A DNA stretch of 64,000 nt. Origin: Bimastos eiseni. Taxonomy: Eukaryota > Annelida > Clitellata > Crassiclitellata > Lumbricidae. The notes beneath the pieces were generated by a model, which was not told where the DNA came from, searched no databases, and was given only the letters and a program-made list of their open reading frames with translations. The DNA lies in contig OY365810.1 of NCBI GenBank assembly GCA_959347315.1, positions 5,909,857 to 5,973,856 of the forward strand, in the 5' to 3' direction. The position numbers were made by a program, and so were the translations under genes. This document shows, in pieces, positions 1-63,910 of this stretch; the first letter of the stretch is position 1, and each line of letters begins with the position of its first letter.

Positions 1-52
1 TGCTCGTTACATGTTCCATGGACACATGGATTTGACTTGCATTCGTCGATTT
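1..52 (-). CDS. EGF exon E00, partial (cut by left edge), E4 form
   Basis: Only residues 1-17 are in the window, including Cys5, Cys10 and Cys15 and the acidic run E1-I-D3-E4. It is identical over the shared bases to E11, which lies 10,717 bp to the right, so the missing part is probably like E11 (Gly23, Thr37). The acceptor AG lies just right of base 52. Confidence 0.88.
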
Positions 53-976
53 CTGTAAAGGAAAGCAATAACTATAAAGAATCGTTGGATTTATAACCTT
101 GACCATTGGAACAATGCGACGGGACCTCACCCCAGCTGCTAAGAGACAATGAAAATTTTCCTACCGATGTATTGGGCGTGGTAATTCTCCCAACGTGGTG
201 TTCTGAGGTGTTCCTGCCGACAACGCAATTTGGGCAATTTCTGCCATTTTTTTGCCAAATTTACCTTGTGTTATTACGTATTCTAACCTAAAATTCAATG
301 CATATCTACATGCGTCCATCAGTTATACAACTGAAGCTCGTCAGTGTGGAGATAAAAATGCCTGGAGTGGGGTCCCTCGCACGATGAGTTCACCTAATCA
401 GGGATATCATCCATCCAATTATCTTGCAAAAAATGATCAGTAACTCCGATCAGTAAACTACGTTTTCGGGAAGATATGGATCACTTATGAACTAATGGAA
501 CCAGTCAACTCTTAAGAATGTTTCGATCAACAATGGCATCAGTGTTACATGTCTATCGATTGTCATGAACAAGGTAATCACTAATCGATATAAAATAAAT
601 GTTCGTTAGGCCTACTCACAGATCAAGATTAACCATGTCTTGCAATGCTCATACATGCACCCCAGCAGATGTCCATAGGCCGTGATTGGATTTTAAGTAA
701 TGAAATAAGTCACAACAGTCGAATATTTCGTTTCATTAATTATTTTAAAATGCCTATATAAGTTTATCGAGTTATGTGAAGAGAGTGATACGACAGATGA
801 TTTATTTCGTACACGAGCCATAATTAACTTTTCCACCAGACATAATTCATTCATCGCGCTATTCAGATCTATTCCGATGCAAATAGCAATCTCAGTTTCC
901 AGTAAAATAACTCCGCGGTTACCATCGACTTGACTACAACGGATAAGATGACATCCTAGTAGACTTAAAGCCTGAC

Positions 977-1087
977 CTGATTCACAGTTTGAACCAGTGT
1001 ATCCCGATTCACAGATGCATGCGTAGTTGTTTAACTGCTCGTTACATGTTCCATGGACACATGGATTTGACTTGCATTTGTCGATTT
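977..1087 (-). CDS. EGF exon E01, K4 form
   Basis: Intact 111-bp exon with all six cysteines, Lys4 in place of Glu4, Ala23, Ser28 and Ser37. The acceptor tract is one A shorter than in most copies. It is preceded in transcription by a 1659-bp intron (1088-2746) containing two exon-loss scars. Its partner in the 10.7-kb duplication is E12. Confidence 0.92.
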
Positions 1088-2746
1088 CTGTAAAGGAAGC
1101 AATAGCTATAAAGAAGCGCCGGATTTATAACTTTGACTATTGGAACAATGCCACGGGACATCACGCCAAGGCCTGTGAGAAAATGACAATTCCCATACCG
1201 ATGTATTGGGTGTGGTAATTCTGCCAACGTGGTATTCAGAGGAGTTCCTGCTGACAACGCATTTTTACCATTTGCTGCCATTTAATTTTGCAAAATTTAC
1301 CTTGTGTAATTACGCATTCTAACCAAACATTAAAGGAATATCTTCATGGACCATCAGATATACAATTGAAGCACGTCAGTGTGGAGATAAAAACGCCCGC
1401 AGAAGGGGCCTATACAAGAGAAGTTCACCTAATTGAGGAAATCATCCTTCCAAGCATCTAGCAAACAATGCTTAGGTACTACGATGATTAAACTACGTTA
1501 TCGAGAAGACACGGACAATTTATGAACAGACAGAACCGGTCAACTCTTAAAAAGTTTCCATCGTCAATGGCATCAGTGTTATCAATCTATTTATTGATAG
1601 AGGATATAGATAGATAGATAATACAAAGGCCTTTAGAACGTTACAAACTTTTTGCATTACTTTGGGTGGGTAATTCTACCAAAGTGATCTTCGGCGGAAT
1701 TCCAGCAGCCAACGCCTTGTGAGCAGTTGCTGCATTTGTTGGCCAAATAAAACTTTTGTTATTGCGTACACTAACCAAATATTTAATCTATATCGACATG
1801 TGTCTAATCACTAATATAATCTAAGCACTTCAGAATGCAGATATAAACCACGACTTCAGTGCGACTTGGATCTCTCATGAACTGATAATATCAATCAACT
1901 CATGAGAAAGTTTCGATCGCCACGACATCAGACCTATCTCTCTCTTGATCAGTAAGTACAAGCCTATCAATTACGGATGACACTTAAATGTTCGTTAATC
2001 ATAAAAATCCATAAATAGCTTATATAACAAACGCAATTCGATCGTAATCCGCTTTGCGGATCTTCACCTACAATTAAGGACCTCGATTTCCAGCAAAGGA
2101 ACTCCGCGATCACCTCAAATTAGATTCCAACGGATCAGATAACAGCAGTATATAGCAAACAAAGCTCAGTAATTCCCACCAGTAAACTACGTTTTCGGGA
2201 AGATATGGATCACTTATGAATTGACGGAACCAATAAACTCTAATAAAGTTTCGATCGCAATGGCATCAGTGTGATGGTTCTTTCGATTTGCATGAACAAA
2301 CCAATCAATAATGGATGTGAAATTAATGTTCGTTCGGACTACACAGAGTTGAAGAATAACCATGTCATACATTGTTCATACATGCACCGCAGCAGTTGTC
2401 CATAGGCAATGATTGGCTTTTATGTGATTAAATAAGTCAAAACAGTCGACTATTTCATTTCATTAATTATTTAAAATACCTAAATATGCTAATTTAGTTA
2501 TTTGAAGAGAGTGATACGATGGACATTATAATTCGTTTACAAGCCATAATTATCTAGACCAGCAGACATATATCGTTCAAAGCGTTATTCGGATCCAATC
2601 CGATGCCAAAAGCAATCTCAAATTAGATTCCAACGGATCAGATAACAGCAGTATGTAGCAAACAATTTCCAATAAAAGAACTCCGCGGTCACCTTAAACT
2701 TGACTACAACGGATAAGATGACATCCTAGTAGACTTAAAGCCTGAC
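1088..2746 (-). repeat. Long intron with two exon-loss scars
   Basis: Within 1659 bp, a diverged acceptor-side module (about 1,640-1,850) and a second donor-side module (about 1,860-2,150) follow one another without any EGF exon. One junction lies near 1,600-1,640 at a TAGA repeat. The second lies at 2,131-2,170, where donor-side sequence runs straight into GCAAACAAAGCTCAGTAATT. I read it as three repeat units that lost two exons. Confidence 0.72.
1580..1622. repeat. Small hairpin plus TAGA repeat marking long introns
   Basis: TATCAAT and ATTGATA (1580-1586, 1593-1599) form a perfect 7-bp inverted repeat with a 6-base loop, followed by a short TAGA run. Copies start at 12,297, 48,195, 51,672, 55,528 and 59,389; diverged versions lie near 25,381, 42,633 and 61,443. 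It sits at the first exon-loss junction. Confidence 0.7.
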
Positions 2747-2857
2747 CTGTTTCACAGTTTGAACCAGTGTATCCCGATTCACAGTAGCATGCGTAGTTGT
2801 TTAACTGCTCGTTACATGTTCCATGAACACATGGATTTGACTTGCATTCGTCGATTT
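2747..2857 (-). CDS. EGF exon E02, E4 form with Tyr25
   Basis: All six cysteines are present and the frame is open. An AT-to-TA swap changes Ile25, between Cys24 and Cys26, to Tyr; only E13 shares this. Val11 uses GTT. The exon ends with Thr37. It lies between the 927-bp intron on its left and the 1659-bp intron on its right. Confidence 0.92.
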
Positions 2858-3784
2858 CTGTAAAGGAAAGCAATAACTATAAAGAATCGTTGGAATCATA
2901 ACCTTGACCATTGGAACAATGCCACGGGACCTCACGCCAAGGACTGTGAGAAAATGACAATTTCCATACCGATTTCTTGAATGTGGTAATTCTCCCAACG
3001 TGGTATTCAGAGGAGTTCCTGCTGACAACGCATTTTGAGCATTTGCTGCCATTTAATTTTGCCAAATTTACCTTGTGTTATTACGCAATCTAACCTAAAA
3101 TTAAATGCATATCTACATGGGTCCATCAGTTATACAATTGAGGCTCGTCAGTGTGGAGATCAAAACGCCCAGTATAGGGTCCCAAACACGACAAGTTCAC
3201 CTAAATAGGGAAATTATATATAAAATTTATCTAGCAAACAATGGTCAGCAACTCCGATCAGTAAACTACGTTTTCGGGAACATATGGATCACTTATGAAC
3301 TAATGGAACCAGTCAACTCTTTAAAAAGTCTCGATCAAAAATGGCATCAGTGTTACATGTCTATCGATTGTCATGAACAAGGTAATCACTAATCGATATG
3401 AAATAAATGTTCGTTAGGCCTACTCACAGATCAAGATTAACCATGTCTTGCAATGCTCATACATGCACCCCAGCAGATGCCCATAAGCCGTGATTGGCTT
3501 TTAAGTAGTGAAATAAGTCACAACAGTCGAATATTTCGTTTCATTAATTATTTTAAAATGCCTACATAAGTTTATCGAGCTAATTGAAGAAAGTGATACG
3601 ACAGATGATTTATTTCGTACACAAGAGATAGTTAGCTTTTCCACCAGACATAATTCATTCATCGCGCTATGCAGATCTATTCCGATGCAAATGACAATGT
3701 CAATTTCCAGCAAAAGAACTCCGCGGTTACCTTCGACTTGACTACAACGGATAAGATGACATCCTAGTAGACTTAAAGCCTGAC
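2858..3784 (-). repeat. Standard medium intron (about 925 bp), one of 34
   Basis: This stretch shows the basic non-coding unit. About 400 bp to the right of each exon (acceptor-side module) ends near the GCAAACAATG motif. It is followed by a donor-side module of about 520 bp running to the next exon. Other introns of 922-968 bp have the same layout, for example 4566-5490, 9065-9989, 14613-15171's neighbours, 31313-32237 and 62873-63799. I recognise no second gene, RNA gene or mobile-element protein in it. Confidence 0.8.
3501..3784 (-). other. In-frame open extension beyond the E03 donor (94 codons)
   Basis: If the E03 donor is not used, the frame continues for 94 codons before a stop. The same extension is open after E01, E05, E12, E14, E16, E27, E37 and others whose flank reads TTCGACTTGAC. 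Copies with TTAAACTTGAC stop after about 17 codons and short-intron types after about 19. It could be an intron-retention tail or chance; no domain is recognised. Confidence 0.4.
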
Positions 3785-3895
3785 CTGATTCACAGTTTGA
3801 ACCAGTGTATCCCGATTCACAGATGCATGCGTAGTTGTTTAACTGCTCGTTACATGTTCCATGGACACATGGATTTGACTTGCATTCGTCGATTT
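3785..3895 (-). CDS. EGF exon E03, canonical E4 form
   Basis: This copy represents the majority sequence: E1-I-D-E-C, Ala23, Ser28, Ser37. It is the downstream member of a close pair with E04, separated by a 559-bp intron. Past its donor the reading frame stays open for 94 more codons, to a stop at 3501-3503. Near-identical copies are E05, E14 and E16. Confidence 0.94.
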
Positions 3896-4454
3896 CTGTA
3901 AAGGAAAGCAATAACTAAAAAGAATCGTTGGAATTATAACCTTGACTATTGGAACAATGCCACGGGACCTCACGTCAAGGGCTGTGAGAAAATGACAATT
4001 CCCATACCGATGTATTGGGTGTGGTAATTCTTCCAACGTGGTATTCAGAAGAGTTCCTGCTGACAACGCATTGTTAGCATTTGCTGCCATTTAATTTTGC
4101 AAAATTTACCTTGTGTATTTACGCATTCTAACCACAAATTCAATGCATATCTACATGGACCATCAGATATACAATTGAAGCACGTCAGTATGGAGATAAA
4201 AACGCAAGCAGTAGGGAGGGGCCCATACTCGAAAAGTTCACCTAATTGAGGAAATCATCCTTCCAAGCATCTAGCAAACAATGCTTAGGTACTACGATGA
4301 TTAAACTACGTTCTTCCGAAGACATGGATCATCTACGAACTGATAGACCCAGTCAACTCTTAAAAAGTCCCATACACGATAAGTTCACCTCCGCGGTTAC
4401 CTTAAATTTCACAACAGCCCATAAGATGACATCCTCGTAGACTTAAAGCCTGAC
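3896..4454 (-). repeat. Short-intron class (554-559 bp), one of 15
   Basis: The acceptor-side module is complete, but the donor-side module is cut down. After CAACTCTTAAAAAGT it jumps to CCCATACACGATAAGTTCAC and the last 70 bp before the donor. About 370 bp of the medium intron is absent. The same junction occurs at 5602-6160, 8400-8953, 10101-10658, 14613-15171, 16319-16877, 19104-19662, 21847-22405, 27890-28448, 30647-31201, 32349-32906, 34054-34611, 39100-39658, 45999-46556 and 49474-50028. Confidence 0.82.
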
Positions 4455-4565
4455 CTGTTTCACAGTTTGAACCAGTGTATCCAAATTCACAGATGCAACC
4501 ATAGTTGTTTAACTGCTCGTTACATGTTCCATGGACACATGGATTTGACTTGCATTCGTCGATAT
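4455..4565 (-). CDS. EGF exon E04, D1/E4 form with Phe28
   Basis: The acceptor-side bases AT give Asp1, so this copy has the textbook calcium-EGF start D-I-D-E-C. It also has Gly23, Phe28 and Thr37. The acceptor reads CTCTACAG. It is the upstream member of the short-intron pair with E03; E06, E15 and E17 are the same type. Confidence 0.92.
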
Positions 4566-5490
4566 CTGTAGAGGAAAGCAGTAACTATAGAGAATCGTTG
4601 GATTTATAACCTTGACTATTGGAACATTGCGACGGGACCTCACGCCAGCTGCTAAGAGAGAATGTAAATTTCCCTACCGATGTATTGGGCGTGGTAATTC
4701 TCCCAACGTGGTTTTCTGAGGAGTTCCTGCCGACAACGCAATTTGGGCAATTTCTGCCATTTTTTTGCCAAATTTACCTTGTGTTATTACGCAATCTAAC
4801 CTAAAATTAAATGCATATCTACATGGGTCCATCAGTTATACAATTGAGGCTCGTCAGTGTGGAGATCAAAACGCCCAGTGTAGGGTCCCAAACACGACAA
4901 GTTCACCTAAATAGGGAAATTATATATAAAATTTATCTAGCAAACAATGGTCAGTAACTCCGATCAGTAAGCTACGTTTTCGGGAAGATATGGATCACTT
5001 ATGAACCAATGGAACCAGTCAACTCTTAAAAAAGTGTCGATCAACAATGGCATCAGTGTTACATGTCTATCGATTGTCATGAACAAGGTAATCACTAATC
5101 GATATGAAATAAATGTTCGTTAGGCCTACTCACAGATCAAGATTGACCATGTCTTGCAATGCTCATACATGCACCCCAGCAGATGCCCATAAGCCGTGAT
5201 TGGCTTTTAAGTAATGAAATAAGTCACAACAGTCGAATATTTCGTTTCATTAATTATTTTAAAATGCCTACATAAGTTTATCGAGCTAATTGAAGAAAGT
5301 GATACGACAGATGATTTATTTCGTACACAAGAGATAGTTAGCTTTTCCACCAGACATAATTCATTCATCGCGCTATGCAGATCTATTCCGATGCAAATGA
5401 CAATGTCAATTTCCAGCAAAAGAACTCCGCGGTTACCTTCGACTTGACTACAACGGATAAGATGACATCCTAGTAGACTTAAAGCCTGAC

Positions 5491-5601
5491 CTGATTCACA
5501 GTTTGAACCAGTGTATCCCGATTCACAGATGCATGCGTAGTTGTTTAACTGCTCGTTACATGTTCCATGGACACATGGATTTGACTTGCATTCGTCGATT
5601 T
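5491..5601 (-). CDS. EGF exon E05, canonical E4 form
   Basis: Same predicted residues as E03, from which it is offset by 1,706 bp as part of a tandem duplication. The donor-side frame is open for 94 codons, to 5207. It is paired with E06 across a 559-bp intron. Confidence 0.94.
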
Positions 5602-6160
5602 CTGTAAAGGAAAGCAATAACTAAAAAGAATCGTTGGAATTATAACCTTGACTATTGGAACAATGCCACGGGACCTCACGCCAAGGGCTGTGAGAAAATG
5701 ACAATTCCCATACCGATGTATTGGGTGTGGTAATTCTTCCAACGTGGTATTCAGAAGAGTTCCTGCTGACAACGCATTGTTAGCATTTGCTGCCATTTAA
5801 TTTTGCAAAATTTACCTTGTGTATTTACGCATTCTAACCACAAATTCAATGCATATCTACATGGACCATCAGATATACAATTGAAGCACGTCAGTATGGA
5901 GATAAAAACGCAAGCAGTAGGGAGGGGCCCATACTCGAAAAGTTCACCTAATTGAGGAAATCATCCTTCCAAGCATCTAGCAAACAATGCTTAGGTACTA
6001 CGATGATTAAACTACGTTCTTCCGAAGACATGGATCATCTACGAACTGATAGACCCAGTCAACTCTTAAAAAGTCCCATACACGATAAGTTCACCTCCGC
6101 GGTTACCTTAAATTTCACAACAGCCCATAAGATGACATCCTCGTACACTTAAAGCCTGAC

Positions 6161-6271
6161 CTGTTTCACAGTTTGAACCAGTGTATCCAAATTCACAGAT
6201 GCAACCATAGTTGTTTAACTGCTCGTTACATGTTCCATGGACACATGGATTTGACTTGCATTCGTCGATAT
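6161..6271 (-). CDS. EGF exon E06, D1/E4 form with Phe28
   Basis: A D-I-D-E-C start with Gly23, Phe28 and Thr37, as in E04 (1,706 bp to the left). The acceptor tract carries a G interruption relative to E04. It is preceded in transcription by a 968-bp intron. Confidence 0.92.
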
Positions 6272-7239
6272 CTGTAAAGGCAAGCAGTAACTATAGAGAA
6301 TCGTTCGATTTATAACCTTGACTATTGGAACAATGCCACGGGACTTCACGCCAGCTGCTAAGAGAGAATGTAAATTTCCCTACCGATGTATTGGGCGTGG
6401 TAATTCTCCCAACGTGGTTTTCTGAGGAGTTCCTGCCGACAACGCAATTTGGGCAATTTCTGCCATTTTTTTGCCAAATTTACCTTGTGTTATTACGTAT
6501 TCTAACCTAAAATTCAATGCATAGCTACATGGGTCTATCAGTTATACAACTGAAGCTCGTCAGTGTGGAGATAAAAATTCCCGGTGTGGGGTCCCTCGCA
6601 CAAGAAGTTCACCTAATCAGGGATATCATCCTTCCAATTATCTAGCAAAAAATGATCAGTAACTCCGTTCAGTAAGCTGCGTTTTCGGGAAGATATGGAT
6701 CACTTATGAACTAATGGAACCAGTCAACTCTTAAAAAAGTTTCGATCAACAATGGCATCAGTGTTACATGTCTATTGATTGTCATGAACAAGGTAATCAC
6801 TAATCGATATGAAGTGAATGTTCGTTAGGCCTACTCACAGATCAAGATTAACCATGTCTTGCAATATTCATACATGCACCCCAGCAGATGCCTAATGGCA
6901 GTGATTGGCTTTTATGTGATTAAATAAGTCAAAACAGTCGACTATTTCATTTCATTAATTATTTTAAAATACCTAAATATGCTAATTGAGCTATTTGAAG
7001 AGAGTGATACGATGGACATTATAATTCGTTTACAAACCATAATTATCTAGACCAGCAGACATATATCGTTCAAAGCGGTATTCGGATCCAATCCGATGTC
7101 AAAAGCAATCTCAAATTAGATTCCAACGGATCAGATAACAGCAGTATGTAGCAAACAATATCCAATAAAAGAACTCCGCGGTCACCTTAAACTTGACTAC
7201 AACGGGTAAGATGACATCCTAGAAGTCTTAAAGTCTGAC

Positions 7240-7350
7240 CTGTTTCACAGTTTGAACCAGTGTATCCCGATTCACAGATGCATGCGTAGTTGTTTAACTG
7301 CTCGTGACATGTTCCATGGACACATGGATTTGACTTGCATTCGTCGATTT
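7240..7350 (-). CDS. EGF exon E07, E4 form with His16
   Basis: All six cysteines are present. Asn16, just after Cys15, is changed to His; E18 and E38 share this. Ala23, Ser28 and Thr37 are kept. The donor flank has a C-to-T change compared with neighbours but keeps CAG|GTCAG. The near-identity of the 10.7-kb duplication ends shortly to its right. Confidence 0.92.
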
Positions 7351-10769: not shown

Positions 10770-11693
10770 CTGTAAAGGAAAGCAATAACTATAAAGAATC
10801 GTTGGATTTATAACCTTGACCATTGGAACAATGCGACGGGACCTCACCCCAGCTGCTAAGAGACAATGAAAATTTTCCTACCGATGTATTGGGCGTGGTA
10901 ATTCTCCCAACGTGGTGTTCTGAGGTGTTCCTGCCGACAACGCAATTTGGGCAATTTCTGCCATTTTTTTGCCAAATTTACCTTGTGTTATTACGTATTC
11001 TAACCTAAAATTCAATGCATATCTACATGCGTCCATCAGTTATACAACTGAAGCTCGTCAGTGTGGAGATAAAAATGCCTGGAGTGGGGTCCCTCGCACG
11101 ATGAGTTCACCTAATCAGGGATATCATCCATCCAATTATCTTGCAAAAAATGATCAGTAACTCCGATCAGTAAACTACGTTTTCGGGAAGATATGGATCA
11201 CTTATGAACTAATGGAACCAGTCAACTCTTAAGAATGTTTCGATCAACAATGGCATCAGTGTTACATGTCTATCGATTGTCATGAACAAGGTAATCACTA
11301 ATCGATATAAAATAAATGTTCGTTAGGCCTACTCACAGATCAAGATTAACCATGTCTTGCAATGCTCATACATGCACCCCAGCAGATGTCCATAGGCCGT
11401 GATTGGATTTTAAGTAATGAAATAAGTCACAACAGTCGAATATTTCGTTTCATTAATTATTTTAAAATGCCTATATAAGTTCATCGAGTTATGTGAAGAG
11501 AGTGATACGACAGATGATTTATTTCGTACACGAGCCATAATTAACTTTTCCACCAGACATAATTCATTCATCGCGCTATTCAGATCTATTCCGATGCAAA
11601 TAGCAATCTCAGTTTCCAGTAAAATAACTCCGCGGTTACCATCGACTTGACTACAACGGATAAGATGACATCCTAGTAGACTTAAAGCCTGAC

Positions 11694-11804
11694 CTGATTC
11701 ACAGTTTGAACCAGTGTATCCCGATTCACAGATGCATGCGTAGTTGTTTAACTGCTCGTTACATGTTCCATGGACACATGGATTTGACTTGCATTTGTCG
11801 ATTT
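11694..11804 (-). CDS. EGF exon E12, K4 form
   Basis: Duplicate of E01, offset 10,717 bp: Lys4, Ala23, Ser28, Ser37. A 1659-bp intron (11805-13463) precedes it in transcription, again like E01. Confidence 0.92.
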
Positions 11805-13463
11805 CTGTAAAGGAAGCAATAGCTATAAAGAAGCGCCGGATTTATAACTTTGACTATTGGAACAATGCCACGGGACATCACGCCAAGGCCTGTGAGAAAA
11901 TGACAATTCCCATACCGATGTATTGGGTGTGGTAATTCTGCCAACGTGGTATTCAGAGGAGTTCCTGCTGACAACGCATTTTTACCATTTGCTGCCATTT
12001 AATTTTGCAAAATTTACCTTGTGTAATTACGCATTCTAACCAAACATTAAAGGAATATCTTCATGGACCATCAGATATACAATTGAAGCACGTCAGTGTG
12101 GAGATAAAAACGCCCGCAGAAGGGGCCTATACAAGAGAAGTTCACCTAATTGAGGAAATCATCCTTCCAAGCATCTAGCAAACAATGCTTAGGTACTACG
12201 ATGATTAAACTACGTTATCGAGAAGACACGGACAATTTATGAACAGACAGAACCGGTCAACTCTTAAAAAGTTTCCATCGTCAATGGCATCAGTGTTATC
12301 AATCTATTTATTGATAGAGGATATAGATAGATAGATAATACAAAGGCCTTTAGAACGTTACAAACTTTTTGCATTACTTTGGGTGGGTAATTCTACCAAA
12401 GTGATCTTCGGCGGAATTCCAGCAGCCAACGCCTTGTGAGCAGTTGCTGCATTTGTTGGCCAAATAAAACTTTTGTTATTGCGTACACTAACCAAATATT
12501 TAATCTATATCGACATGTGTCTAATCACTAATATAATCTAAGCACTTCAGAATGCAGATATAAACCACGACTTCAGTGCGACTTGGATCTCTCATGAACT
12601 GATAATATCAATCAACTCATGAGAAAGTTTCGATCGCCACGACATCAGACCTATCTCTCTCTTGATCAGTAAGTACAAGCCTATCAATTACGGATGACAC
12701 TTAAATGTTCGTTAATCATAAAAATCCATAAATAGCTTATATAACAAACGCAATTCGATCGTAATCCGCTTTGCGGATCTTCACCTACAATTAAGGACCT
12801 CGATTTCCAGCAAAGGAACTCCGCGATCACCTCAAATTAGATTCCAACGGATCAGATAACAGCAGTATATAGCAAACAAAGCTCAGTAATTCCCACCAGT
12901 AAACTACGTTTTCGGGAAGATATGGATCACTTATGAATTGACGGAACCAATAAACTCTAATAAAGTTTCGATCGCAATGGCATCAGTGTGATGGTTCTTT
13001 CGATTTGCATGAACAAACCAATCAATAATGGATGTGAAATTAATGTTCGTTCGGACTACACAGAGTTGAAGAATAACCATGTCATACATTGTTCATACAT
13101 GCACCGCAGCAGTTGTCCATAGGCAATGATTGGCTTTTATGTGATTAAATAAGTCAAAACAGTCGACTATTTCATTTCATTAATTATTTAAAATACCTAA
13201 ATATGCTAATTTAGTTATTTGAAGAGAGTGATACGATGGACATTATAATTCGTTTACAAGCCATAATTATCTAGACCAGCAGACATATATCGTTCAAAGC
13301 GGTATTCGGATCCAATCCGATGCCAAAAGCAATCTCAAATTAGATTCCAACGGATCAGATAACAGCAGTATGTAGCAAACAATTTCCAATAAAAGAACTC
13401 CGCGGTCACCTTAAACTTGACTACAACGGATAAGATGACATCCTAGTAGACTTAAAGCCTGAC
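11805..13463 (-). repeat. Long intron, duplicate of 1088-2746
   Basis: Same length and the same two exon-less junctions (near 12,320-12,360 and 12,848-12,890), offset 10,717 bp. Only isolated base differences were noticed, for example T2585 against G13302. Confidence 0.75.
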
Positions 13464-13574
13464 CTGTTTCACAGTTTGAACCAGTGTATCCCGATTCACA
13501 GTAGCATGCGTAGTTGTTTAACTGCTCGTTACATGTTCCATGAACACATGGATTTGACTTGCATTCGTCGATTT
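13464..13574 (-). CDS. EGF exon E13, E4 form with Tyr25
   Basis: Duplicate of E02, including the Tyr25 change between Cys24 and Cys26 and Thr37. Keeping this private change supports a recent origin for the large duplication. Confidence 0.92.
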
Positions 13575-14501
13575 CTGTAAAGGAAAGCAATAACTATAAA
13601 GAATCGTTGGAATCATAACCTTGACCATTGGAACAATGCCACGGGACCTCACGCCAAGGACTGTGAGAAAATGACAATTTCCATACCGATTTCTTGAATG
13701 TGGTAATTCTCCCAACGTGGTATTCAGAGGAGTTCCTGCTGACAACGCATTTTGAGCATTTGCTGCCATTTAATTTTGCCAAATTTACCTTGTGTTATTA
13801 CGCAATCTAACCTAAAATTAAATGCATATCTACATGGGTCCATCAGTTATACAATTGAGGCTCGTCAGTGTGGAGATCAAAACGCCCAGTATAGGGTCCC
13901 AAACACGACAAGTTCACCTAAATAGGGAAATTATATATAAAATTTATCTAGCAAACAATGGTCAGCAACTCCGATCAGTAAACTACGTTTTCGGGAACAT
14001 ATGGATCACTTATGAACTAATGGAACCAGTCAACTCTTTAAAAAGTCTCGATCAAAAATGGCATCAGTGTTACATGTCTATCGATTGTCATGAACAAGGT
14101 AATCACTAATCGATATGAAATAAATGTTCGTTAGGCCTACTCACAGATCAAGATTAACCATATCTTGCAATGCTCATACATGCACCCCAGCAGATGCCCA
14201 TAAGCCGTGATTGGCTTTTAAGTAATGAAATAAGTCACAACAGTCGAATATTTCGTTTCATTAATTATTTTAAAATGCCTACATAAGTTTATCGAGCTAA
14301 TTGAAGAAAGTGATACGACAGATGATTTATTTCGTACACAAGAGATAGTTAGCTTTTCCACCAGACATAATTCATTCATCGCGCTATGCAGATCTATTCC
14401 GATGCAAATGACAATGTCAATTTCCAGCAAAAGAACTCCGCGGTTACCTTCGACTTGACTACAACGGATAAGATGACATCCTAGTAGACTTAAAGCCTGA
14501 C

Positions 14502-14612
14502 CTGATTCACAGTTTGAACCAGTGTATCCCGATTCACAGATGCATGCGTAGTTGTTTAACTGCTCGTTACATGTTCCATGGACACATGGATTTGACTTGC
14601 ATTCGTCGATTT
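14502..14612 (-). CDS. EGF exon E14, canonical E4 form
   Basis: Duplicate of E03 in the second 10.7-kb block, with the same residues and an open frame past the donor down to 14218. It is paired with E15 across 559 bp. Confidence 0.94.
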
Positions 14613-15171
14613 CTGTAAAGGAAAGCAATAACTAAAAAGAATCGTTGGAATTATAACCTTGACTATTGGAACAATGCCCCGGGACCTCACGCCAAGGGCT
14701 GTGAGAAAATGACAATTCCCATACCGATGTATTGGGTGTGGTAATTCTTCCAACGTGGTATTCAGAAGAGTTCCTGCTGACAACGCATTGTTAGCATTTG
14801 CTGCCATTTAATTTTGCAAAATTTACCTTGTGTATTTACGCATTCTAACCACAAATTCAATGCATATCTACATGGACCATCAGATATACAATTGAAGCAC
14901 GTCAGTATGGAGATAAAAACGCAAGCAGTAGGGAGGGGCCCATACTCGAAAAGTTCACCTAATTGAGGAAATCATCCTTCCAAGCATCTAGCAAACAATG
15001 CTTAGGTACTACGATGATTAAACTACGTTCTTCCGAAGACATGGATCATCTACGAACTGATAGACCCAGTCAACTCTTAAAAAGTCCCATACACGATAAG
15101 TTCACCTCCGCGGTTACCTTAAATTTCACAACAGCCCATAAGATGACATCCTCGTAGACTTAAAGCCTGAC

Positions 15172-15282
15172 CTGTTTCACAGTTTGAACCAGTGTATCCA
15201 AATTCACAGATGCAACCATAGTTGTTTAACTGCTCGTTACATGTTCCATGGACACATGGATTTGACTTGCATTCGTCGATAT
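15172..15282 (-). CDS. EGF exon E15, D1/E4 form with Phe28
   Basis: Duplicate of E04: D-I-D-E-C start, Gly23, Phe28, Thr37 and the same CTCTACAG acceptor. Confidence 0.92.
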
Positions 15283-16207
15283 CTGTAGAGGAAAGCAGTA
15301 ACTATAGAGAATCGTTGGATTTATAACCTTGACTATTGGAACAATGCCACGGGACCTCACGCCAGCTGCTAAGAGAGAATGTAAATTTCCCTACCGATGT
15401 ATTGGGCGTGGTAATTCTCCCAACGTGGTTTTCTGAGGAGTTCCTGCCGACAACGCAATTTGGGCAATTTCTGCCATTTTTTTGCCAAATTTACCTTGTG
15501 TTATTACGCAATCTAACCTAAAATTAAATGCATATCTACATGGGTCCATCAGTTATACAATTGAGGCTCGTCAGTGTGCAGATCAAAACGCCCAGTGTAG
15601 GGTCCCAAACACGACAAGTTCACCTAAATAGGGAAATTATATATAAAATTTATCTAGCAAACAATGGTCAGTAACTCCGATCAGTAAGCTACGTTTTCGG
15701 GAAGATATGGATCACTTATGAACCAATGGAACCAGTCAACTCTTAAAAAAGTGTCGATCAACAATGGCATCAGTGTTACATGTCTATCGATTGTCATGAA
15801 CAAGGTAATCACTAATCGATATGAAATAAATGTTCGTTAGGCCTACTCACAGATCAAGATTGACCATGTCTTGCAATGCTCATACATGCACCCCAGCAGA
15901 TGCCCATAAGCCGTGATTGGCTTTTAAGTAATGAAATAAGTCACAACAGTCGAATATTTCGTTTCATTAATTATTTTAAAATGCCTACATAAGTTTATCG
16001 AGCTAATTGAAGAAAGTGATACGACAGATGATTTATTTCGTACACAAGAGATAGTTAGCTTTTCCACCAGACATAATTCATTCATCGCGCTATGCAGATC
16101 TATTCCGATGCAAATGACAATGTCAATTTCCAGCAAAAGAACTCCGCGGTTACCTTCGACTTGACTACAACGGATAAGATGACATCCTAGTAGACTTAAA
16201 GCCTGAC

Positions 16208-16318
16208 CTGATTCACAGTTTGAACCAGTGTATCCCGATTCACAGATGCATGCGTAGTTGTTTAACTGCTCGTTACATGTTCCATGGACACATGGATTTG
16301 ACTTGCATTCGTCGATTT
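16208..16318 (-). CDS. EGF exon E16, canonical E4 form
   Basis: Duplicate of E05, 1,706 bp right of E14. The frame stays open past the donor to 15924. It is paired with E17 across 559 bp. Confidence 0.94.
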
Positions 16319-16877
16319 CTGTAAAGGAAAGCAATAACTAAAAAGAATCGTTGGAATTATAACCTTGACTATTGGAACAATGCCACGGGACCTCACGCCA
16401 AGGGCTGTGAGAAAATGACAATTCCCATACCGATGTATTGGGTGTGGTAATTCTTCCAACGTGGTATTCAGAAGAGTTCCTGCTGACAACGCATTGTTAG
16501 CATTTGCTGCCATTTAATTTTGCAAAATTTACCTTGTGTATTTACGCATTCTAACCACAAATTCAATGCATATCTACATGGACCATCAGATATACAATTG
16601 AAGCACGTCAGTATGGAGATAAAAACGCAAGCAGTAGGGAGGGGCCCATACTCGAAAAGTTCACCTAATTGAGGAAATCATCCTTCCAAGCATCTAGCAA
16701 ACAATGCTTAGGTACTACGATGATTAAACTACGTTCTTCCGAAGACATGGATCATCTACGAACTGATAGACCCAGTCAACTCTTAAAAAGTCCCATACAC
16801 GATAAGTTCACCTCCGCGGTTACCTTAAATTTCACAACAGCCCATAAGATGACATCCTCGTACACTTAAAGCCTGAC

Positions 16878-16988
16878 CTGTTTCACAGTTTGAACCAGTG
16901 TATCCAAATTCACAGATGCAACCATAGTTGTTTAACTGCTCGTTACATGTTCCATGGACACATGGATTTGACTTGCATTCGTCGATAT
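16878..16988 (-). CDS. EGF exon E17, D1/E4 form with Phe28
   Basis: Duplicate of E06: Asp1, Gly23, Phe28, Thr37 and the same interrupted acceptor tract. Confidence 0.92.
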
Positions 16989-17956
16989 CTGTAAAGGCAA
17001 GCAGTAACTATAGAGAATCGTTCGATTTATAACCTTGACTATTGGAACAATGCCACGGGACTTCACGCCAGCTGCTAAGAGAGAATGTAAATTTCCCTAC
17101 CGATGTATTGGGCGTGGTAATTCTCCCAACGTGGTTTTCTGAGGAGTTCCTGCCGACAACGCAATTTGGGCAATTTCTGCCATTTTTTTGCCAAATTTAC
17201 CTTGTGTTATTACGTATTCTAACCTAAAATTCAATGCATAGCTACATGGGTCTATCAGTTATACAACTGAAGCTCGTCAGTGTGGAGATAAAAATTCCCG
17301 GTGTGGGGTCCCTCGCACAAGAAGTTCACCTAATCAGGGATATCATCCTTCCAATTATCTAGCAAAAAATGATCAGTAACTCCGTTCAGTAAGCTGCGTT
17401 TTCGGGAAGATATGGATCACTTATGAACTAATGGAACCAGTCAACTCTTAAAAAAGTTTCGATCAACAATGGCATCAGTGTTACATGTCTATCGATTGTC
17501 ATGAACAAGGTAATCACTAATCGATATGAAGTGAATGTTCGTTAGGCCTACTCACAGATCAAGATTAACCATGTCTTGCAATATTCATACATGCACCCCA
17601 GCAGATGCCTAATGGCAGTGATTGGCTTTTATGTGATTAAATAGGTCAAAACAGTCGACTATTTCATTTCATTAATTATTTTAAAATACCTAAATATGCT
17701 AATTGAGCTATTTGAAGAGAGTGATACGATGGACATTATAATTCGTTTACAAACCATAATTATCTAGACCAGCAGACATATATCGTTCAAAGCGGTATTC
17801 GGATCCAATCCGATGTCAAAAGCAATCTCAAATTAGATTCCAACGGATCAGATAACAGCAGTATGTAGCAAACAATATCCAATAAAAGAACTCCGCGGTC
17901 ACCTTAAACTTGACTACAACGGGTAAGATGACATCCTAGAAGTCTTAAAGTCTGAC

Positions 17957-18067
17957 CTGTTTCACAGTTTGAACCAGTGTATCCCGATTCACAGATGCAT
18001 GCGTAGTTGTTTAACTGCTCGTGACATGTTCCATGGACACATGGATTTGACTTGCATTCGTCGATTT
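17957..18067 (-). CDS. EGF exon E18, E4 form with His16
   Basis: Duplicate of E07, including His16 and the altered donor flank. It is the last exon inside the near-identical part of the 10.7-kb duplication; differences become denser from about 18,134. Confidence 0.92.
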
Positions 18068-19662: not shown

Positions 19663-19773
19663 CTGTTTCACAGTTTGAACCAGTGTATCCCGATTCACAG
19701 ATGCATCGGGAGTTGTTTGACTGCTCGTTACATGTTCCATTGACACATGGATTTGACATGCTTTCGTCGATTT
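19663..19773 (-). CDS. EGF exon E20, degenerate: Cys5 lost
   Basis: The exon is still 111 bp, open and flanked by AG and GT, but Cys5 is Ser, Lys6 Met, His12 Asn, Leu19 Ser, Tyr22 Ser and Ala23 Arg. Losing Cys5 removes the first disulfide (5-15), and losing Tyr22 removes the conserved aromatic. The changes create N-G-T and N-N-S glycosylation sequons. It is probably a decaying exon that may be skipped; a variant fold is possible. E46 shares most changes. Confidence 0.82.
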
Positions 19774-27889: not shown

Positions 27890-28448
27890 CTGTAATGGAA
27901 AGCAATAACTATAAAGAAGCGCCGGATTTATAACTTTGACTATTGGAACAATGCCACGGGACCTCACGCCAAGGGCTGTGAGAAAATGACAATTCCCATA
28001 CCGATGTATTGGGTGTGGTAATTCTTCCAACGTGGTATTCAGAAGAGTTCCTGCTGACAACGCATTGTTAGCATTTGCTGCCATTTAATTTTGCAAAATT
28101 TACCTTGTGTATTTACGCATTCTAACCAAAAATTCAATGCATATCTACATGGACCATCAGATATACAATTGAAGCACGTCAGTATGGAGATAAAAACGCC
28201 CGAAGTAGGGAGGGGCCCATACTCGAAAAGTTCACCTAATTGAGGAAATCATCCATCCAAGCATCTAGCAAACAATGCTTAGGTACTACGATGATTAAAC
28301 TACGTTCTTGCGAAGACATGGATCATTTATGAACTGATAGACCCAGTCAACTCTTAAAAAGTCCCATACACGATAAGTTCACCTCCGCGGTTACCTTAAA
28401 TTTCACTACAACCCATAAGATGACATCCTCGTAGACTTAAAACCTGAC

Positions 28449-28559
28449 CTGTTTCACAGTTTGAGCCAGTGTATCCCAATTCACAGATGCATCCATAGTT
28501 GTTTAACTGCTCGTTACATGTTCCATGGACACATGGATTTGACTTGCATTCGTCGATTT
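28449..28559 (-). CDS. EGF exon E28, E4 form with Gly23/Leu28
   Basis: Counterpart of E23 and E40: Gly23, Leu28, Thr37. The donor flank reads AAACC rather than AAGCC beyond GTCAG, shared within this trio. Confidence 0.92.
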
Positions 28560-29497
28560 CTGTAAAGGAAAGCAATAACTATAAAGAATCGTTGGATTTA
28601 TAACCTTGACCATTGGAACAATGCGACGGGACCTCACCCCAGCTGCTAAGAGACAATGAAAATTTCCCTACCGATGTATTGGGCGTGATTATTCTCCCAA
28701 CGTGGTGTTCTGAGGTGTTCCTGCCGACAACGCATTTTGTGCAATTTCTGCCATTTTTTTTGACAAATTTACCTTGTGTTATTACGTATTCTAATCTAAA
28801 ATTCAATGCATAGCTACATGGGTCCATCAGTTATACAACTGAAGCTCGTCAGTGTGGAGATAAAAATTCCCGGTGTGGGGTCCCTCGCGCGATAAGTTCA
28901 CCTAATCAGAGAAATCATCCTTCCAATTATTTAGCAAAAAATGATCTGTAACTCCGATCAGTAAACTACGTTTTCGGGAAGACATGGATCATTTGTGGAG
29001 TTCCTGCCGACACCGCATTTTGAGAATTTGCTGCCATTTGCATGAACAAACCAATCAATAATGGATGTGAAATTAATGTTCATTCGGACTACGCAGAGAT
29101 GAAGAATAACCATGTCATACATTGTTCATACATGTACCGCAGCAGTTGTCCATAGGCAATGATTGGCTTTTATGTGATTAAATAAGTCAAAACAGTCGAC
29201 TATTTCATTTCATTAATTATTTTAAAATACCTAAATATGCTAATTGAGCTATTTGAAGAGAGTGATACGATGGACATTATAATTCGTTTACAAACCATAA
29301 TTATCTAGACCAGCAGACATATATCGTTCAAAGCGGTATTCGGATCCAATCCGATGCCAAAAGCAATCTCAAATTAGATTCCAACGGATCAGATAACAGC
29401 AGAATGTAGCAAACAATTTCCAATAACAGAACTCCGCGGTCACCTTAAACTTGACTACAACGGATAAGATGACATCCTAGTAGACTTAATGCCTGAC

Positions 29498-29608
29498 CTG
29501 TTTCACAGTTGGAACCAGTGTATCCCGATTCACAGATGCATGCGTAGTTGATTAACTGCTCGTTACATGTTCCATGGACACATGGATTTGACTTGCATTC
29601 GTCGATTT
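29498..29608 (-). CDS. EGF exon E29, E4 form with Ile20
   Basis: Ile20 and TCC for Ser33, as in E24 and E41. Thr37. All cysteines and splice sites are kept. Confidence 0.92.
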
Positions 29609-32237: not shown

Positions 32238-32348
32238 CTGATTCACAGTTTGAACCAGTGTATCCCGATTCACAGATGCATGCGTAGTTGTTTAACTGCT
32301 CGTTACATGTTCCATGGACACATGGATTTGACTTGCATTTGTCGATTT
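32238..32348 (-). CDS. EGF exon E32, K4 form
   Basis: Lys4, Ala23, Ser28, Ser37, short acceptor tract. It sits in the first unit of a 1,705-bp tandem duplication; its copy is E34. Confidence 0.92.
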
Positions 32349-32906: not shown

Positions 32907-33017
32907 CTGTTTCACAGTTTGAGCCAGTGTATCCCGATTCACAGATGCATCCATAGTTGTTTAACTGCTCGTTACATGTTCCATGGACACATGGATTTGA
33001 CTTGCATTCGTCGATTT
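32907..33017 (-). CDS. EGF exon E33, E4 form with Gly23
   Basis: Gly23, Ser28, Thr37 and silent GGC at Gly32. It is paired with E32 across 558 bp and duplicated as E35. Confidence 0.92.
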
Positions 33018-33942
33018 CTGTAAAGGAAAGCAATAACTATAAAGAATCGTTGGATTTATAACCTTGACCATTGGAACAATGCGACGGGACCTCACCCCAG
33101 CTGCTAAGAGACAATGAAAATTTCCTTACCGATGTATTGGGCGTGATAATTCTCCCAACGTGGTGTTCTGAGGTGTTCCTGCCGACAACGCATTTTGGGC
33201 AATTTCTGCCATTTTTTTCGCCAAATTTACCTTGTGTTATTACGTATTCTAACCTAAAATTCAATGCATATCTACATGCGTCCATCAGTTATACAACTGA
33301 AGCTCGTCAGTGTGGAGATAAAAATGCCCGGTGTGGGGTCCCTCGCACGATGAGTTCACCTAATCAGGGATATCATCCATCCAATTATCTTGCAAAAAAT
33401 GATCAGTAACTCCGATCAGTAAACTACGTTTTCGGGAAGATATGGATCACTTATGAACTAATGGAACCAGTCAACTCTTAAGAATGTTTCGATCAACAAT
33501 GGCATTAGTGTTACATGTCTATCGATTGTCATGAACAAGGTAATCACTAATCGATATGAAATAAATGTTCGTTAGGCCTACTCACAGATCAAGATTAACC
33601 ATGTCTTGCAATGCTCATACATGCACCCCAGCAGATGCCCATAGGCCGTGATTGAATTTTAAGTAATGAAATAAGTCACAACAGTCGAATATTTCGTTTC
33701 ATTAATTATTTTAAAATGCCTATATAAGTTTATCGAGTTATGTGAAGAGAGTGATACGACAGATGATTTATTTCGTACACGAGCCATAATTAACTTTTCC
33801 ACCAGACATAATTCATTCATCGCGCTATTCAGATCTATTCCGATGCAAATAGCAATCTCAGTTTCCAGTAAAATAACTCCGCGGTTACCATCGACTTGAC
33901 TACAACGGATAAGATGACATCCTAGTAGACTTAAAGCCTGAC

Positions 33943-34053
33943 CTGATTCACAGTATGAACCAGTGTATCCCGATTCACAGATGCATGCGTAGTTGTTTAA
34001 CTGCTCGTTACATGTTCCATGGACACATGGATTTGACTTGCATTTGTCGATTT
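33943..34053 (-). CDS. EGF exon E34, K4 form with Tyr34
   Basis: Copy of E32 with one replacement: Asn34, just before Cys35, becomes Tyr. This is one of the few differences between the two 1,705-bp units. Confidence 0.92.
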
Positions 34054-34611
34054 CTGTAAAGGAAGCAATAACTATAAAGAAGCGCCGGATTTATAACTTT
34101 GACTATTAGAACAATGCCACGGGACATCACGCCAAGGGCTGTGAGAAAATGACAATTCCCATACCGATATATTGGGTGTGGTAATTCTGCCAACGTGGTA
34201 TTCAGAGGAGTTCCTGCTGACAACGCATTTTTAGCATTTGCTGCCATTTAAATTTGCAAAATTTACCTTGTGTATTTACGCATTCTAACCAAGAATTCAA
34301 TGCATATCTACATGGACCATCAGATATACAATTGAAGCACGTCAGTATGGAGATAATAACGCCCGGAGTAAAGATGGGCCCATACTCGAAAAGTTCACGA
34401 AATTGAGGAAATCATCCTTCCAAGCATCTAGCAAACAATGCTTAGGTACTACGATGATTAAACTACGTTCTTGCGAAGACATGGATCATTTATGAACTGA
34501 TAGACCCAGTCAACTCTTAAAAAGTCCCATACACGATAAGTTCACCTCCGCGGTTACCTTAAATTTCACTACAACCCATAAGATGACATCCTCGTAGACT
34601 TAAAGCCTGAC

Positions 34612-34722
34612 CTGTTTCACAGTTTGAGCCAGTGTATCCCGATTCACAGATGCATCCATAGTTGTTTAACTGCTCGTTACATGTTCCATGGACACATGGA
34701 TTTGACTTGCATTCGTCGATTT
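34612..34722 (-). CDS. EGF exon E35, E4 form with Gly23
   Basis: Copy of E33 (Gly23, Ser28, Thr37). Similarity to the tandem unit falls off to its right, in a shorter 893-bp intron with an exon-loss scar. Confidence 0.92.
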
Positions 34723-39099: not shown

Positions 39100-39658
39100 C
39101 TGTAATGGAAAGCAATAACTATAAAGAAGCGCCGGATTTATAACTTTGACTATTGGAACAATGCCACGGGACCTCACGCCAAGGGCTGTGAGAAAATGAC
39201 AATTCCCATACCGATGTATTGGGTGTGGTAATTCTTCCAACGTGGTATTCAGAAGAGTTCCTGCTGACAACGCATTGTTAGCATTTGCTGCCATTTAATT
39301 TTGCAAAATTTACCTTGTGTATTTACGCATTCTAACCAAAAATTCAATGCATATCTACATGGACCATCAGATATACAATTGAAGCACGTCAGTATGGAGA
39401 TAAAAACGCCCGGAGTAGGGAGGGGCCCATACTCGAAAAGTTCACCTAATTGAGGAAATCATCCATCCAAGCATCTAGCAAACAATGCTTAGGTACTACG
39501 ATGATTAAACTACGTTCTTGCGAAGACATGGATCATTTATGAACAGATAGACCCAGTCAACTCTTAAAAAGTCCCATACACGATAAGTTCACCTCCGAGG
39601 TTACCTTAAATTTCACTACAACCCATAAGATGACATCCTCGTAGACTTAAAACCTGAC

Positions 39659-39769
39659 CTGTTTCACAGTTTGAGCCAGTGTATCCCAATTCACAGATGC
39701 ATCCATAGTTGTTTAACTGCTCGTTACATGTTCCATGGACACATGGATTTGACTTGCATTCGTCGATTT
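39659..39769 (-). CDS. EGF exon E40, E4 form with Gly23/Leu28
   Basis: Gly23, Leu28, Thr37, as in E23 and E28, with which it shares the AAACC donor flank. Confidence 0.92.
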
Positions 39770-40707
39770 CTGTAAAGGAAAGCAATAACTATAAAGAATC
39801 GTTGGATTTATAACCTTGACCATTGGAACAATGCGACGGGACCTCACCCCAGCTGCTAAGAGACAATGAAAATTTCCCTACCGATGTATTGGGCGTGATT
39901 ATTCTCCCAACGTGGTGTTCTGAGGTGTTCCTGCCGACAACGCATTTTGTGCAATTTCTGCCATTTTTTTTGACAAATTTACCTTGTGTTATTACGTATT
40001 CTAATCTAAAATTCAATGCATAGCTACATGGATCCATCAGTTATACAACTGAAGCTCGTCAGTGTGGAGATAAAAATTCCCGGTGTGGGGTCCCTCGCGC
40101 GATAAGTTCACCTAATCAGAGAAATCATCCTTCCAATTATTTAGCAAAAAATGATCTGTAACTCCGATCAGTAAACTACGTTTTCGGGAAGACATGGATC
40201 ATTTGTGGAGTTCCTGCCGACACCGCATTTTGAGAATTTGCTGCCATTTGCATGAACAAACCAATCAATAATGGATGTGAAATTAATGTTCATTCGGACT
40301 ACGCAGAGATGAAGAATAACCATGTCATACATTGTTCATACATGTACCGCAGCAGTTGTCCATAGGCAATGATTGGCTTTTATGTGATTAAATAAGTCAA
40401 AACAGTCGACTATTTCATTTCATTAATTATTTTAAAATACCTAAATATGCTAATTGAGCTATTTGAAGAGAGTGATACGATGGACATTATAATTCGTTTA
40501 CAAACCATAATTATCTAGACCAGCAGACATATATCGTTCAAAGCGGTATTCGGATCCAATCCGATGCCAAAAGCAATCTCAAATTAGATTCCAACGGATC
40601 AGATAACAGCAGAATGTAGCAAACAATTTCCAATAACAGAACTCCGCGGTCACCTTAAACTTGACTACAACGGATAAGATGACATCCTAGTAGACTTAAT
40701 GCCTGAC

Positions 40708-40818
40708 CTGTTTCACAGTTGGAACCAGTGTATCCCGATTCACAGATGCATGCGTAGTTGATTAACTGCTCGTTACATGTTCCATGGACACATGGATTTG
40801 ACTTGCATTCGTCGATTT
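40708..40818 (-). CDS. EGF exon E41, E4 form with Ile20
   Basis: Ile20 and TCC for Ser33, as in E24 and E29. Thr37. It follows the same rearranged 938-bp intron type on its left. Confidence 0.92.
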
Positions 40819-46556: not shown

Positions 46557-46667
46557 CTGTTTCACAATTTGAACCAGTGTATCCCGATTCACAGATGCAT
46601 CGGGAGTTGTTTGACTGCTCGTTACATGTTCCATTGACACATGGATTTGACTTGCTTTCGTCGATTT
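46557..46667 (-). CDS. EGF exon E46, degenerate: Cys5 lost
   Basis: Like E20, Cys5 is Ser, His12 Asn, Leu19 Ser, Tyr22 Ser and Ala23 Arg, but Lys6 is kept. The exon is open and spliceable in principle (acceptor CCATTTCAG). Sharing these changes with E20, 26.9 kb away, shows the damage came before their duplication. Confidence 0.82.
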
Positions 46668-62761: not shown

Positions 62762-62872
62762 CTGTTTCACAGTTTGAACCAGTATATCCCGATTCACAGA
62801 TGCATCCGTAGTTGTTTAACTGCTCGTTACATGTTCCGTGGACACATGGATTTGATTTGCACTCGTAGATTT
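62762..62872 (-). CDS. EGF exon E58, Y3 form with Gly23
   Basis: Asp3 of the calcium motif becomes Tyr (E-I-Y-E-C). Gly23, Thr37, Glu4 as GAG and Lys6 as AAA. The donor is CAG|GTCACG, weaker than the others. It is the most diverged six-cysteine copy and is preceded by a 927-bp intron. Confidence 0.9.
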
Positions 62873-63799
62873 CTGTAAAGGAGTGCAATAACTATAAAGA
62901 ATCGTTGGAATTATAACCTTGAATCTTGGAACAATGCCACGAGACCTCACGCCAAGGGCTGTGAGAGAATGACAATTTCCCTACCGATGTTTTGGGCGTG
63001 GTAATTCTCCCAACGTAGTATTCTGAGGAGTTCCTGCCGACAACGCATTTTGAGCATTTGCTGCCACTTAATGTTGCCAAATTTACCATTTGTTATTACG
63101 CCTTTTAACCTAAAATTCAATGCATATCTACATGGGTCCATCAGTTATGCAATTGAAGCTCGTCAGTGTGGAGATAAAAACGCCAGGTGTAGGGTCTCAT
63201 ACACGATAAGTTCACCTAAATAGGGAAATCATCTTTAAAGATTATCTAGAAAACAATGATCAGTAACTCCGATCAGTAAAATACATTTTCGGGAAGATAT
63301 GGATCATTTATGAACTAATGGAACCAGTCAACTTTTAAAAAAGTTTCGATCGCCAATGGCATCAGTGTGATTGTTCTACCTCTTTGCATGAACAAACCAA
63401 TCAAAAATGGATGTAAAATTAATGTTCGTTAGGACTACCCAGAGATCAAGAATACCCAGGCCATGCAATGTTAATACATGCACCGCAGCAGTTGTCCATA
63501 GGCAATGATTGGCTTTTATGTTATCAAATGAGTCAAAACAGTCGACTATTTCATGTCAATAATTATTTTAAAATACCTAAATATGCTAACTGAGCTACTT
63601 GAACAGAGTGATACGACGGATAATTTATTTCGCACACAAGCCATAATTAGCTTGTCCAGCAAACATAATTCGTTCATAGCGGAATTCGGATCTATTCCGA
63701 TGCAAATAACAATCTCAATTTCCAGTAAAAGAACTACGCGGTCACCTTAAACTTGACTACAACGGATAAGATGACATGCTAGTAGACTTGAAGCCTGAC

Positions 63800-63910
63800 C
63801 TGTTTCACAGTTTGAACCAGTGTATCCCGATTCACAGATGCATCCGTAGTTGTTTAACTGCTCGTTACATGTTCCATGGACACATGGATTTGACTTGCAT
63901 TCGTCGATTT
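63800..63910 (-). CDS. EGF exon E59, E4 form with Gly23 (first transcribed in window)
   Basis: Gly23, Ser28, Thr37, all cysteines; acceptor CCTTGACAG. The bases from 63,911 to the window end match the intron flank seen right of other exons, so further exons are expected beyond the edge. Confidence 0.92.

What the first reader, a model, noticed from the sequence alone, without database searches (positions are those of the whole stretch)
1..63910. Sixty near-identical, phase-symmetric EGF exons in one uninterrupted array
Every copy is exactly 111 bp, phase 1-1, on the same strand, with an AG acceptor, a GT donor and no stop or frameshift, and no other exon type intervenes over 64 kb. Many animal genes encode EGF domains by phase-1 exons, but such uniform copies with uniform introns over this length suggest very recent or continuing expansion, or concerted evolution. 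The protein would be an unusually homogeneous EGF rod of more than 2,200 residues.
Basis: partly seen in the sequence, partly recalled or inferred. Interest (0 to 1): 0.85.

Follow-up and report, generated by a model that had tools for sequence, protein, structure and literature searches.

The report
Giant near-identical EGF exon array
Part of what looks like one animal gene, in which a small protein-building exon (an EGF domain) is repeated at least 59 times in a row, grown by recent block copying while selection keeps the copies working; it is a large, clean example of a known kind of gene growth.

Summary
Confirmed: 59 complete 111-bp EGF exons plus a truncated sixtieth lie on the minus strand. 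All 59 donors are GT, all 60 acceptors AG, with no stop or frameshift. The introns are not uniform: lengths run from 554 to 2138 bp in several classes.

It is most likely coding sequence under moderate purifying selection, not a satellite. Substitution events per site are 0.51 in exons against 1.41-1.52 in flanking introns; of 56 exon events none makes a stop, one hits a cysteine, and synonymous changes are in excess, dN/dS about 0.5. Collinear duplicates agree, although their latest changes look near-neutral.

Growth is by multi-exon blocks and is recent: six of seven introns after exons 42-48 match those after 53-59 at 99.7-100%, and a dimer pair reaches 99.8%. No trace of single-exon duplication.

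Fibropellin-1-like EGF proteins of molluscs head the 592-residue search. The species is unknown. The known kind is the intragenic domain-exon array with concerted evolution (LPA KIV-2, SmPoMuc, dumpy). The calcium-binding EGF pattern is missing in all 59 units. Expression, gene ends and assembly correctness are untested.

The parts
1..63910 (-). Array of 59 complete EGF exons and one truncated exon; the coding strand runs from high to low coordinates; no first or last exon of the gene was recognised in the window
63800..63910 (-). First complete exon (exon 1), 111 bp, phase 1-1
977..1087 (-). Last complete exon (exon 59), 111 bp, phase 1-1
1..52 (-). Truncated exon 60, cut by the window edge
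46557..46667 (-). Exon 14: diverged copy, first cysteine is serine and Tyr-Ala reads Ser-Arg; frame and splice sites intact
19663..19773 (-). Exon 40: close twin of exon 14 (following introns 98.6% alike), same loss of the first cysteine
53..7350 (-). Recent block, exons 53-59 with the introns that follow them; matches 10770-18067. Six of seven introns match their partner as best hit at 99.7-100%; intron 56 (like intron 45) has intron 43 as best hit, 99.6%
10770..18067 (-). Partner of the block above, exons 42-48 with following introns
33018..34722 (-). Recent dimer unit, exons 25-26 with following introns; introns 99.8% to those of 31313-33017
31313..33017 (-). Partner dimer, exons 27-28 with following introns
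39100..40818 (-). Exons 19-20 with following introns; intron 19 is 99.9% to intron 31, intron 20 is 99.5% to intron 32
27890..29608 (-). Partner, exons 31-32 with following introns

Best explanation
The window lies inside one large animal gene for a fibropellin-like extracellular protein built of repeated EGF domains. Shown by the sequence: each domain is one phase 1-1 exon; blocks of two or more exons with their introns have been duplicated repeatedly, some very recently; exons change more slowly than introns and keep frame, splice sites and (57 of 59) cysteines. Inferred: unequal exchange between mispaired introns adds and removes whole exon blocks. Because every exon is 111 bp and symmetric, any gain or loss keeps the reading frame, so the protein lengthens or shortens without damage, and turnover homogenises the copies. 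Inferred: the exons are spliced in series into a long secreted or membrane-tethered EGF chain, perhaps in matrix, coat or adhesive material where length and repeat number matter more than the identity of single domains. The chain is probably more flexible than Notch or fibrillin rods, since the calcium-site pattern is absent.
For: 59 of 59 exons intact with GT/AG. Parsimony events per site, 58 of 59 copies by the script's filter: exon 0.505, upstream intron 1.413, downstream 1.517; 35 non-synonymous, 21 synonymous, 0 stop, 1 cysteine; binomial P 0.006 (synonymous excess), 0.003 (cysteines), 0.008 (no stop), treating events as independent; no event at the AG and GT dinucleotides, against 14% of 387 upstream intron dinucleotides without events. 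A cruder count on all 59 agrees more weakly, P 0.038, 0.036, 0.046. In the 14 longest collinear duplicate pairs exon/intron divergence is 0-0.55, Fisher P 0.022 or less in each, exon indels 0 (0.3-2.3 expected per pair); the pairs overlap and are not independent. No exon remnant on the coding strand of the 10 long introns. Recent multi-exon blocks, with abrupt onset in or at the edge of an intron in three of six alignments made. Pfam EGF E 1.2e-15. First two of the 120 listed proteins in the 592-residue search: fibropellin-1-like of Crassostrea virginica and Haliotis rubra.
Against: No transcript, no gene ends, no second genome: splicing in series is unseen. In the recent duplicates changes are mostly non-synonymous (for example 13 of 16), close to the neutral mix, so protein-level constraint is weak or recent. 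Even synonymous changes fall below the intron rate (21 against about 34 expected from the figures), so part of the exon/intron contrast is not protein selection; intron counts may also be inflated by alignment error. Within interval classes the contrast is modest (670-bp class: exons 95.8% and 98.5%, intron 94.4%). Two short duplicate pairs gave no significant contrast (P 0.08 and 0.36, no exon change). Two copies have lost a cysteine. Copies recombine, so the tree used for counting is approximate. Near-identical neighbouring blocks could partly be assembly errors or two haplotypes joined.
Confidence: 0.75

Rival explanations
1. A satellite-like array that captured an EGF exon and is no longer coding; intactness only reflects youth of the copies.
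For: Recent duplicates differ mainly by non-synonymous changes; copies 14 and 40 have lost a cysteine and several otherwise constant residues; block structure resembles higher-order satellite repeats.
Against: Exons evolve at about a third of the flanking intron rate, with no stop in 56 events, cysteine depletion and synonymous excess; no indel in any exon and no exon remnant on the coding strand of the 10 long introns.
Confidence: 0.1
2. A bank of alternative exons: the exons are used one or a few at a time, as in Dscam-type arrays (recalled comparison), giving many isoforms.
For: Symmetric phase lets any subset be spliced in frame.
Against: 14 of 59 peptides are identical and mean identity is 92.5%, so choosing among them would give little diversity; the six homologous database proteins read carry their EGF units in series.
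Confidence: 0.1
3. Several separate tandem genes, or a partly false array made by joining haplotypes of a very heterozygous genome.
For: Consecutive introns nearly identical between neighbouring 10.7-kb blocks; strong repetitiveness makes assembly hard.
Against: Many divergence levels coexist, from 99.8% and more down to below 80% between intron stretches, which haplotypes alone would not give; no other protein domain was found in the 10 of 39 distinct intron reading frames searched.
Confidence: 0.15

Closest known systems
LPA kringle IV type 2 array (apolipoprotein(a))
   Same: Tandem array inside one gene; each unit's exons and introns repeat nearly identically; subtypes differ at three synonymous sites and at more than 100 intronic sites (PMC11201333, passages)
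   Different: Kringle of two exons with introns of about 4 and 1.2 kb, and 2 to 36 units measured in one cohort; here a single 111-bp EGF exon per unit, at least 59 copies, mixed block sizes, copy number in populations unknown
Fibropellin-1-like EGF proteins of molluscs (Haliotis, Crassostrea)
   Same: Runs of similar EGF units; Haliotis units share the short C2-C3 spacing CVNGTC/CVHGTC; single Haliotis and oyster units up to 68% identical to ours
   Different: Three of them (P0121, P0122, P0124) have 12, 9 and 7 equal-length units with internal identity 85, 84 and 77% (up to 86% with other unit bounds) against 92.5% here; they carry other domains (IgGFc-binding or vWA), which in our gene would lie outside the window if present
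Drosophila dumpy
   Different: There the homogenised repeat is PIGSFEAST within one large exon, not one EGF per exon
Schistosoma SmPoMuc and Coccidioides SOWgp repeats
   Same: Repeated exons with their introns nearly identical, concerted evolution, repeat number differs between individuals or strains (PMC2576457, passages)
   Different: Mucin-like or wall repeats rather than disulfide-rich EGF domains; for SmPoMuc the authors say unequal crossing over alone does not explain homogenisation across loci
Nebulin
   Same: Growth by duplication of multi-domain, multi-exon blocks (seven domains at a time in chicken; PMC1553488, passages)
   Different: Muscle protein (recalled) with one dominant block size; here block sizes vary

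Membership tests
EGF-like domain (Pfam PF00008) | Profile match above the curated cut-off | tested here: met
   57.9 bits against 21.5, E 1.2e-15, on a three-unit joined query with two mistyped joint residues
EGF-like domain (Pfam PF00008) | Six cysteines in EGF spacing | tested here: met
   57 of 59 units; copies 14 and 40 lack the first cysteine
Calcium-binding EGF | PROSITE-like pattern with D/N between C3 and C4 (pattern recalled) | tested here: not met
   0 of 59 units; the strict [DN]-x-[DN]-[EQ]-C start in 4 of 59
Fibropellin | Tandem EGF units in series in the protein | tested here: inconclusive
   Units are in series in the DNA; serial splicing not observed
Fibropellin | CUB and C-terminal avidin-like domains of sea-urchin fibropellin (recalled) | not testable with these tools
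   Gene ends were not reached; own-genome search did not complete
Intragenic domain-exon array with concerted evolution (LPA KIV-2 type) | Many near-identical coding exon units with homologous introns in one orientation | tested here: met
Intragenic domain-exon array with concerted evolution (LPA KIV-2 type) | All units belong to one transcript | not testable with these tools
   No RNA data
Intragenic domain-exon array with concerted evolution (LPA KIV-2 type) | Copy number differs between alleles | not testable with these tools
   One sequence only; species unknown
Satellite DNA | No coding constraint | tested here: not met
   Exon constraint, moderate in strength

The most novel reading that the evidence does not exclude
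A hypervariable coding array: haplotypes of this species carry very different numbers of EGF exons, so that the length of a giant, non-calcium-stiffened EGF chain is a rapidly evolving quantitative trait (adhesion, egg coat or barrier), with O-glucose and O-GlcNAc motifs on nearly every unit (57 and 59 of 59; consensus recalled) as a regular sugar ladder.
Probability: 0.3. Interest if true: 0.65.

Novelty: new member of a known kind. Interest (0 to 1): 0.5.

Why it matters
The array keeps blocks of many ages in one place, with exon and intron side by side, so it lets one measure how domain repeats grow (block sizes, edges, turnover) and how strongly selection acts on single copies. If copy number is polymorphic, it would be an animal counterpart of the LPA kringle array built on EGF domains. 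It also warns that such genes may be fragmented or missed in short-read assemblies and gene models (inference).

Tried and rejected
Considered and set aside: chance; non-coding satellite; decayed exons hidden in the ten long introns (none on the coding strand; the 13 weak matches listed are all antisense with E 0.58 or worse); other protein domains or transposon proteins in introns (10 of 39 distinct intron frames of 60 or more residues scanned, no Pfam family above its cut-off, two matches at E 0.08-0.09); structured RNA (no Rfam hit at gathering score); inverted repeats (none at E 1e-5). TRF reports only one row because its period limit is 500.

Led nowhere: exact exon patterns in viral contigs and genome contigs (0 matches each). 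Literature: ten searches in the PMC library; in the listings I saw no title or abstract opening that describes this array, which is weak evidence of absence. Papers seen only as passages: PMC11201333, PMC1553488, PMC9314366, PMC2930355, PMC2576457; none was read whole. No structure prediction was run, since the joined exons are not a contiguous translation of the window.

Full report
Observation. The window's minus strand holds 59 complete 111-bp EGF exons and a sixtieth cut by the window start. All 59 donors are GT (CAG|GTCAGG in 55 of 59) and all 60 acceptors AG. Each exon starts at codon position 2 and ends at position 1, so any number of them can be joined in frame; together they give 2183 residues without a stop. 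The exon DNA is 96.2% identical on average, 26 distinct sequences of 59. The six-cysteine pattern appears 57 times, against two hits in total over 100 Markov random sequences.

Is it coding? Counting changes on a tree of 58 of the 59 copies (the script's filter drops exon 1, too close to the window edge), exons have 0.505 events per site, the 400 bp upstream 1.413 and the 60 bp downstream 1.517. Of 56 exon events, 35 are non-synonymous, 21 synonymous, none a stop (P 0.008) and one hits a cysteine (P 0.003); synonymous changes are in excess (P 0.006), dN/dS about 0.52. These P values treat events as independent on an approximate tree. A cruder count of distinct variants in all 59 gives the same direction (36 events, dN/dS 0.56, P 0.038, 0.036, 0.046); without the two diverged copies there are 29 events, dN/dS 0.45, P 0.015, 0.015 and, for no stop, 0.084. 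In the 14 longest collinear duplicate pairs exon divergence is 0 to 0.55 of intron divergence and no exon indel occurs, where 0.3 to 2.3 would be expected per pair; two further short pairs show no exon change but are not significant. Simple pairwise counts agree, pN/pS 0.56. Against this, within interval classes the contrast is modest: identity of the two exons and the intron is 95.8, 98.5 and 94.4% for the 670-bp class, 98.4, 95.8 and 91.5% for the 1000-1040 class, 98.0, 95.5 and 91.3% for the 1045-1080 class. In the most recent pairs the mix of changes is close to neutral, for example 13 of 16 non-synonymous. Synonymous changes too are fewer than the intron rate predicts (21 against about 34). 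I read this as a real but moderate constraint, relaxed for any single copy, as expected when dozens of copies share the task.

How it grew. Intron similarity here is identical bases of the best aligned piece over the longer intron. No intron is more than 95% alike to its direct neighbour (0 of 58 pairs at lag 1), whereas lags 2, 3, 5, 11 and 12 give 8 of 57, 8 of 56, 7 of 54, 12 of 48 and 6 of 47 such pairs. Of the seven introns after exons 42-48, six have the introns eleven places on as best match at 99.7-100%; introns 45 and 56 both match intron 43 best, at 99.6%. Other recent units are exons 25-26 with 27-28 (99.8%), 19-20 with 31-32 (99.5-99.9%), and 3, 6 and 9 (98.9-99.1%). Of six block alignments, three show an abrupt onset of near-identity, lying within an intron or at its edge. 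The longest pair overall is 10.4 kb at 97.1%. Blocks are mosaics: neighbouring introns often have best partners in different places. Unequal exchange between mispaired introns explains this; gene conversion may add to it; neither was observed. The ten long introns contain pieces of the shorter classes but no exon remnant on the coding strand.

What it encodes. Pfam names the units EGF. Solved structures nearest by sequence are Delta-like 1 and Notch, and the list of the best 60 includes a mussel foot protein, PVFP-5, at E 1.3e-6 (query with two mistyped joint residues). In the 592-residue search (best 120 of 670 listed) the first two proteins are fibropellin-1-like of Crassostrea virginica and Haliotis rubra; in the 1295-residue search, where length limits favour long proteins, Notch, SNED1 and crumbs families lead. 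The closest single unit is 71% identical, from an unnamed source; at 68% stand units of Haliotis, an oyster and the brachiopod Lingula, besides unnamed ones. A molluscan origin is a lead, not a result. Among the 233 of 360 fetched proteins with four or more equal-length units, the highest internal identity was 84.8% (86.3% with other unit bounds over the first 240), against 92.5% over the 59 whole units here. The calcium-binding pattern is met by 0 of 59 units, O-fucose by 0, O-glucose by 57 and EOGT-type O-GlcNAc by 59 (patterns recalled). So a calcium-stiffened rod like Notch or fibrillin is unlikely.

Comparison. The kind is known. LPA KIV-2 repeats whole kringle exon pairs with introns (PMC11201333); SOWgp and SmPoMuc repeat near-identical exons with introns and vary in number (PMC2576457); [quoted passage not shown] nebulin grew by seven-domain blocks (PMC1553488). 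All four papers were seen as passages. What stands out here is the copy number in one stretch, at least 59 with neither end seen, one domain per exon, and the range of block sizes and ages. EGF repeats occur in mussel adhesive proteins (PMC9314366, passages), which makes an adhesive role thinkable but no more.

Verdict. A genuine, recently growing EGF exon array, most likely coding; new member of a known kind; moderate interest, higher if copy number is shown to vary. Expression, gene ends, species and assembly remain open.

Noticed in passing
46557-46667 and 19663-19773: Two related copies have lost the first cysteine and changed several otherwise constant residues, yet keep frame and splice sites; the diverged copy was itself duplicated.
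   Followed up: partly
1088-2746, 11805-13463 and the other introns of about 1.66 kb: A middle stretch of roughly 500 bp in these introns has no match at E 1e-10 in the three typical introns used as a library; it may be an older insert.
   Followed up: no
exons throughout the array: Two exon types dominate and often alternate: Glu before the first cysteine with final Thr (30 of 59) and Lys with final Ser (22 of 59).
   Followed up: partly
60825-61383: Two copies of a 277-bp unit in tandem inside an interval between exons (TRF).
   Followed up: no
whole window: CpG observed/expected is 0.93, so little CpG depletion; if the host methylates gene bodies, this gene may not be methylated in the germline.
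   Followed up: no
P0123, a listed homologue: A database protein named 'DNA repair protein Rad9,Rhp9' of Dermatophagoides farinae reads as an EGF-repeat protein, so the name looks wrong.
   Followed up: no
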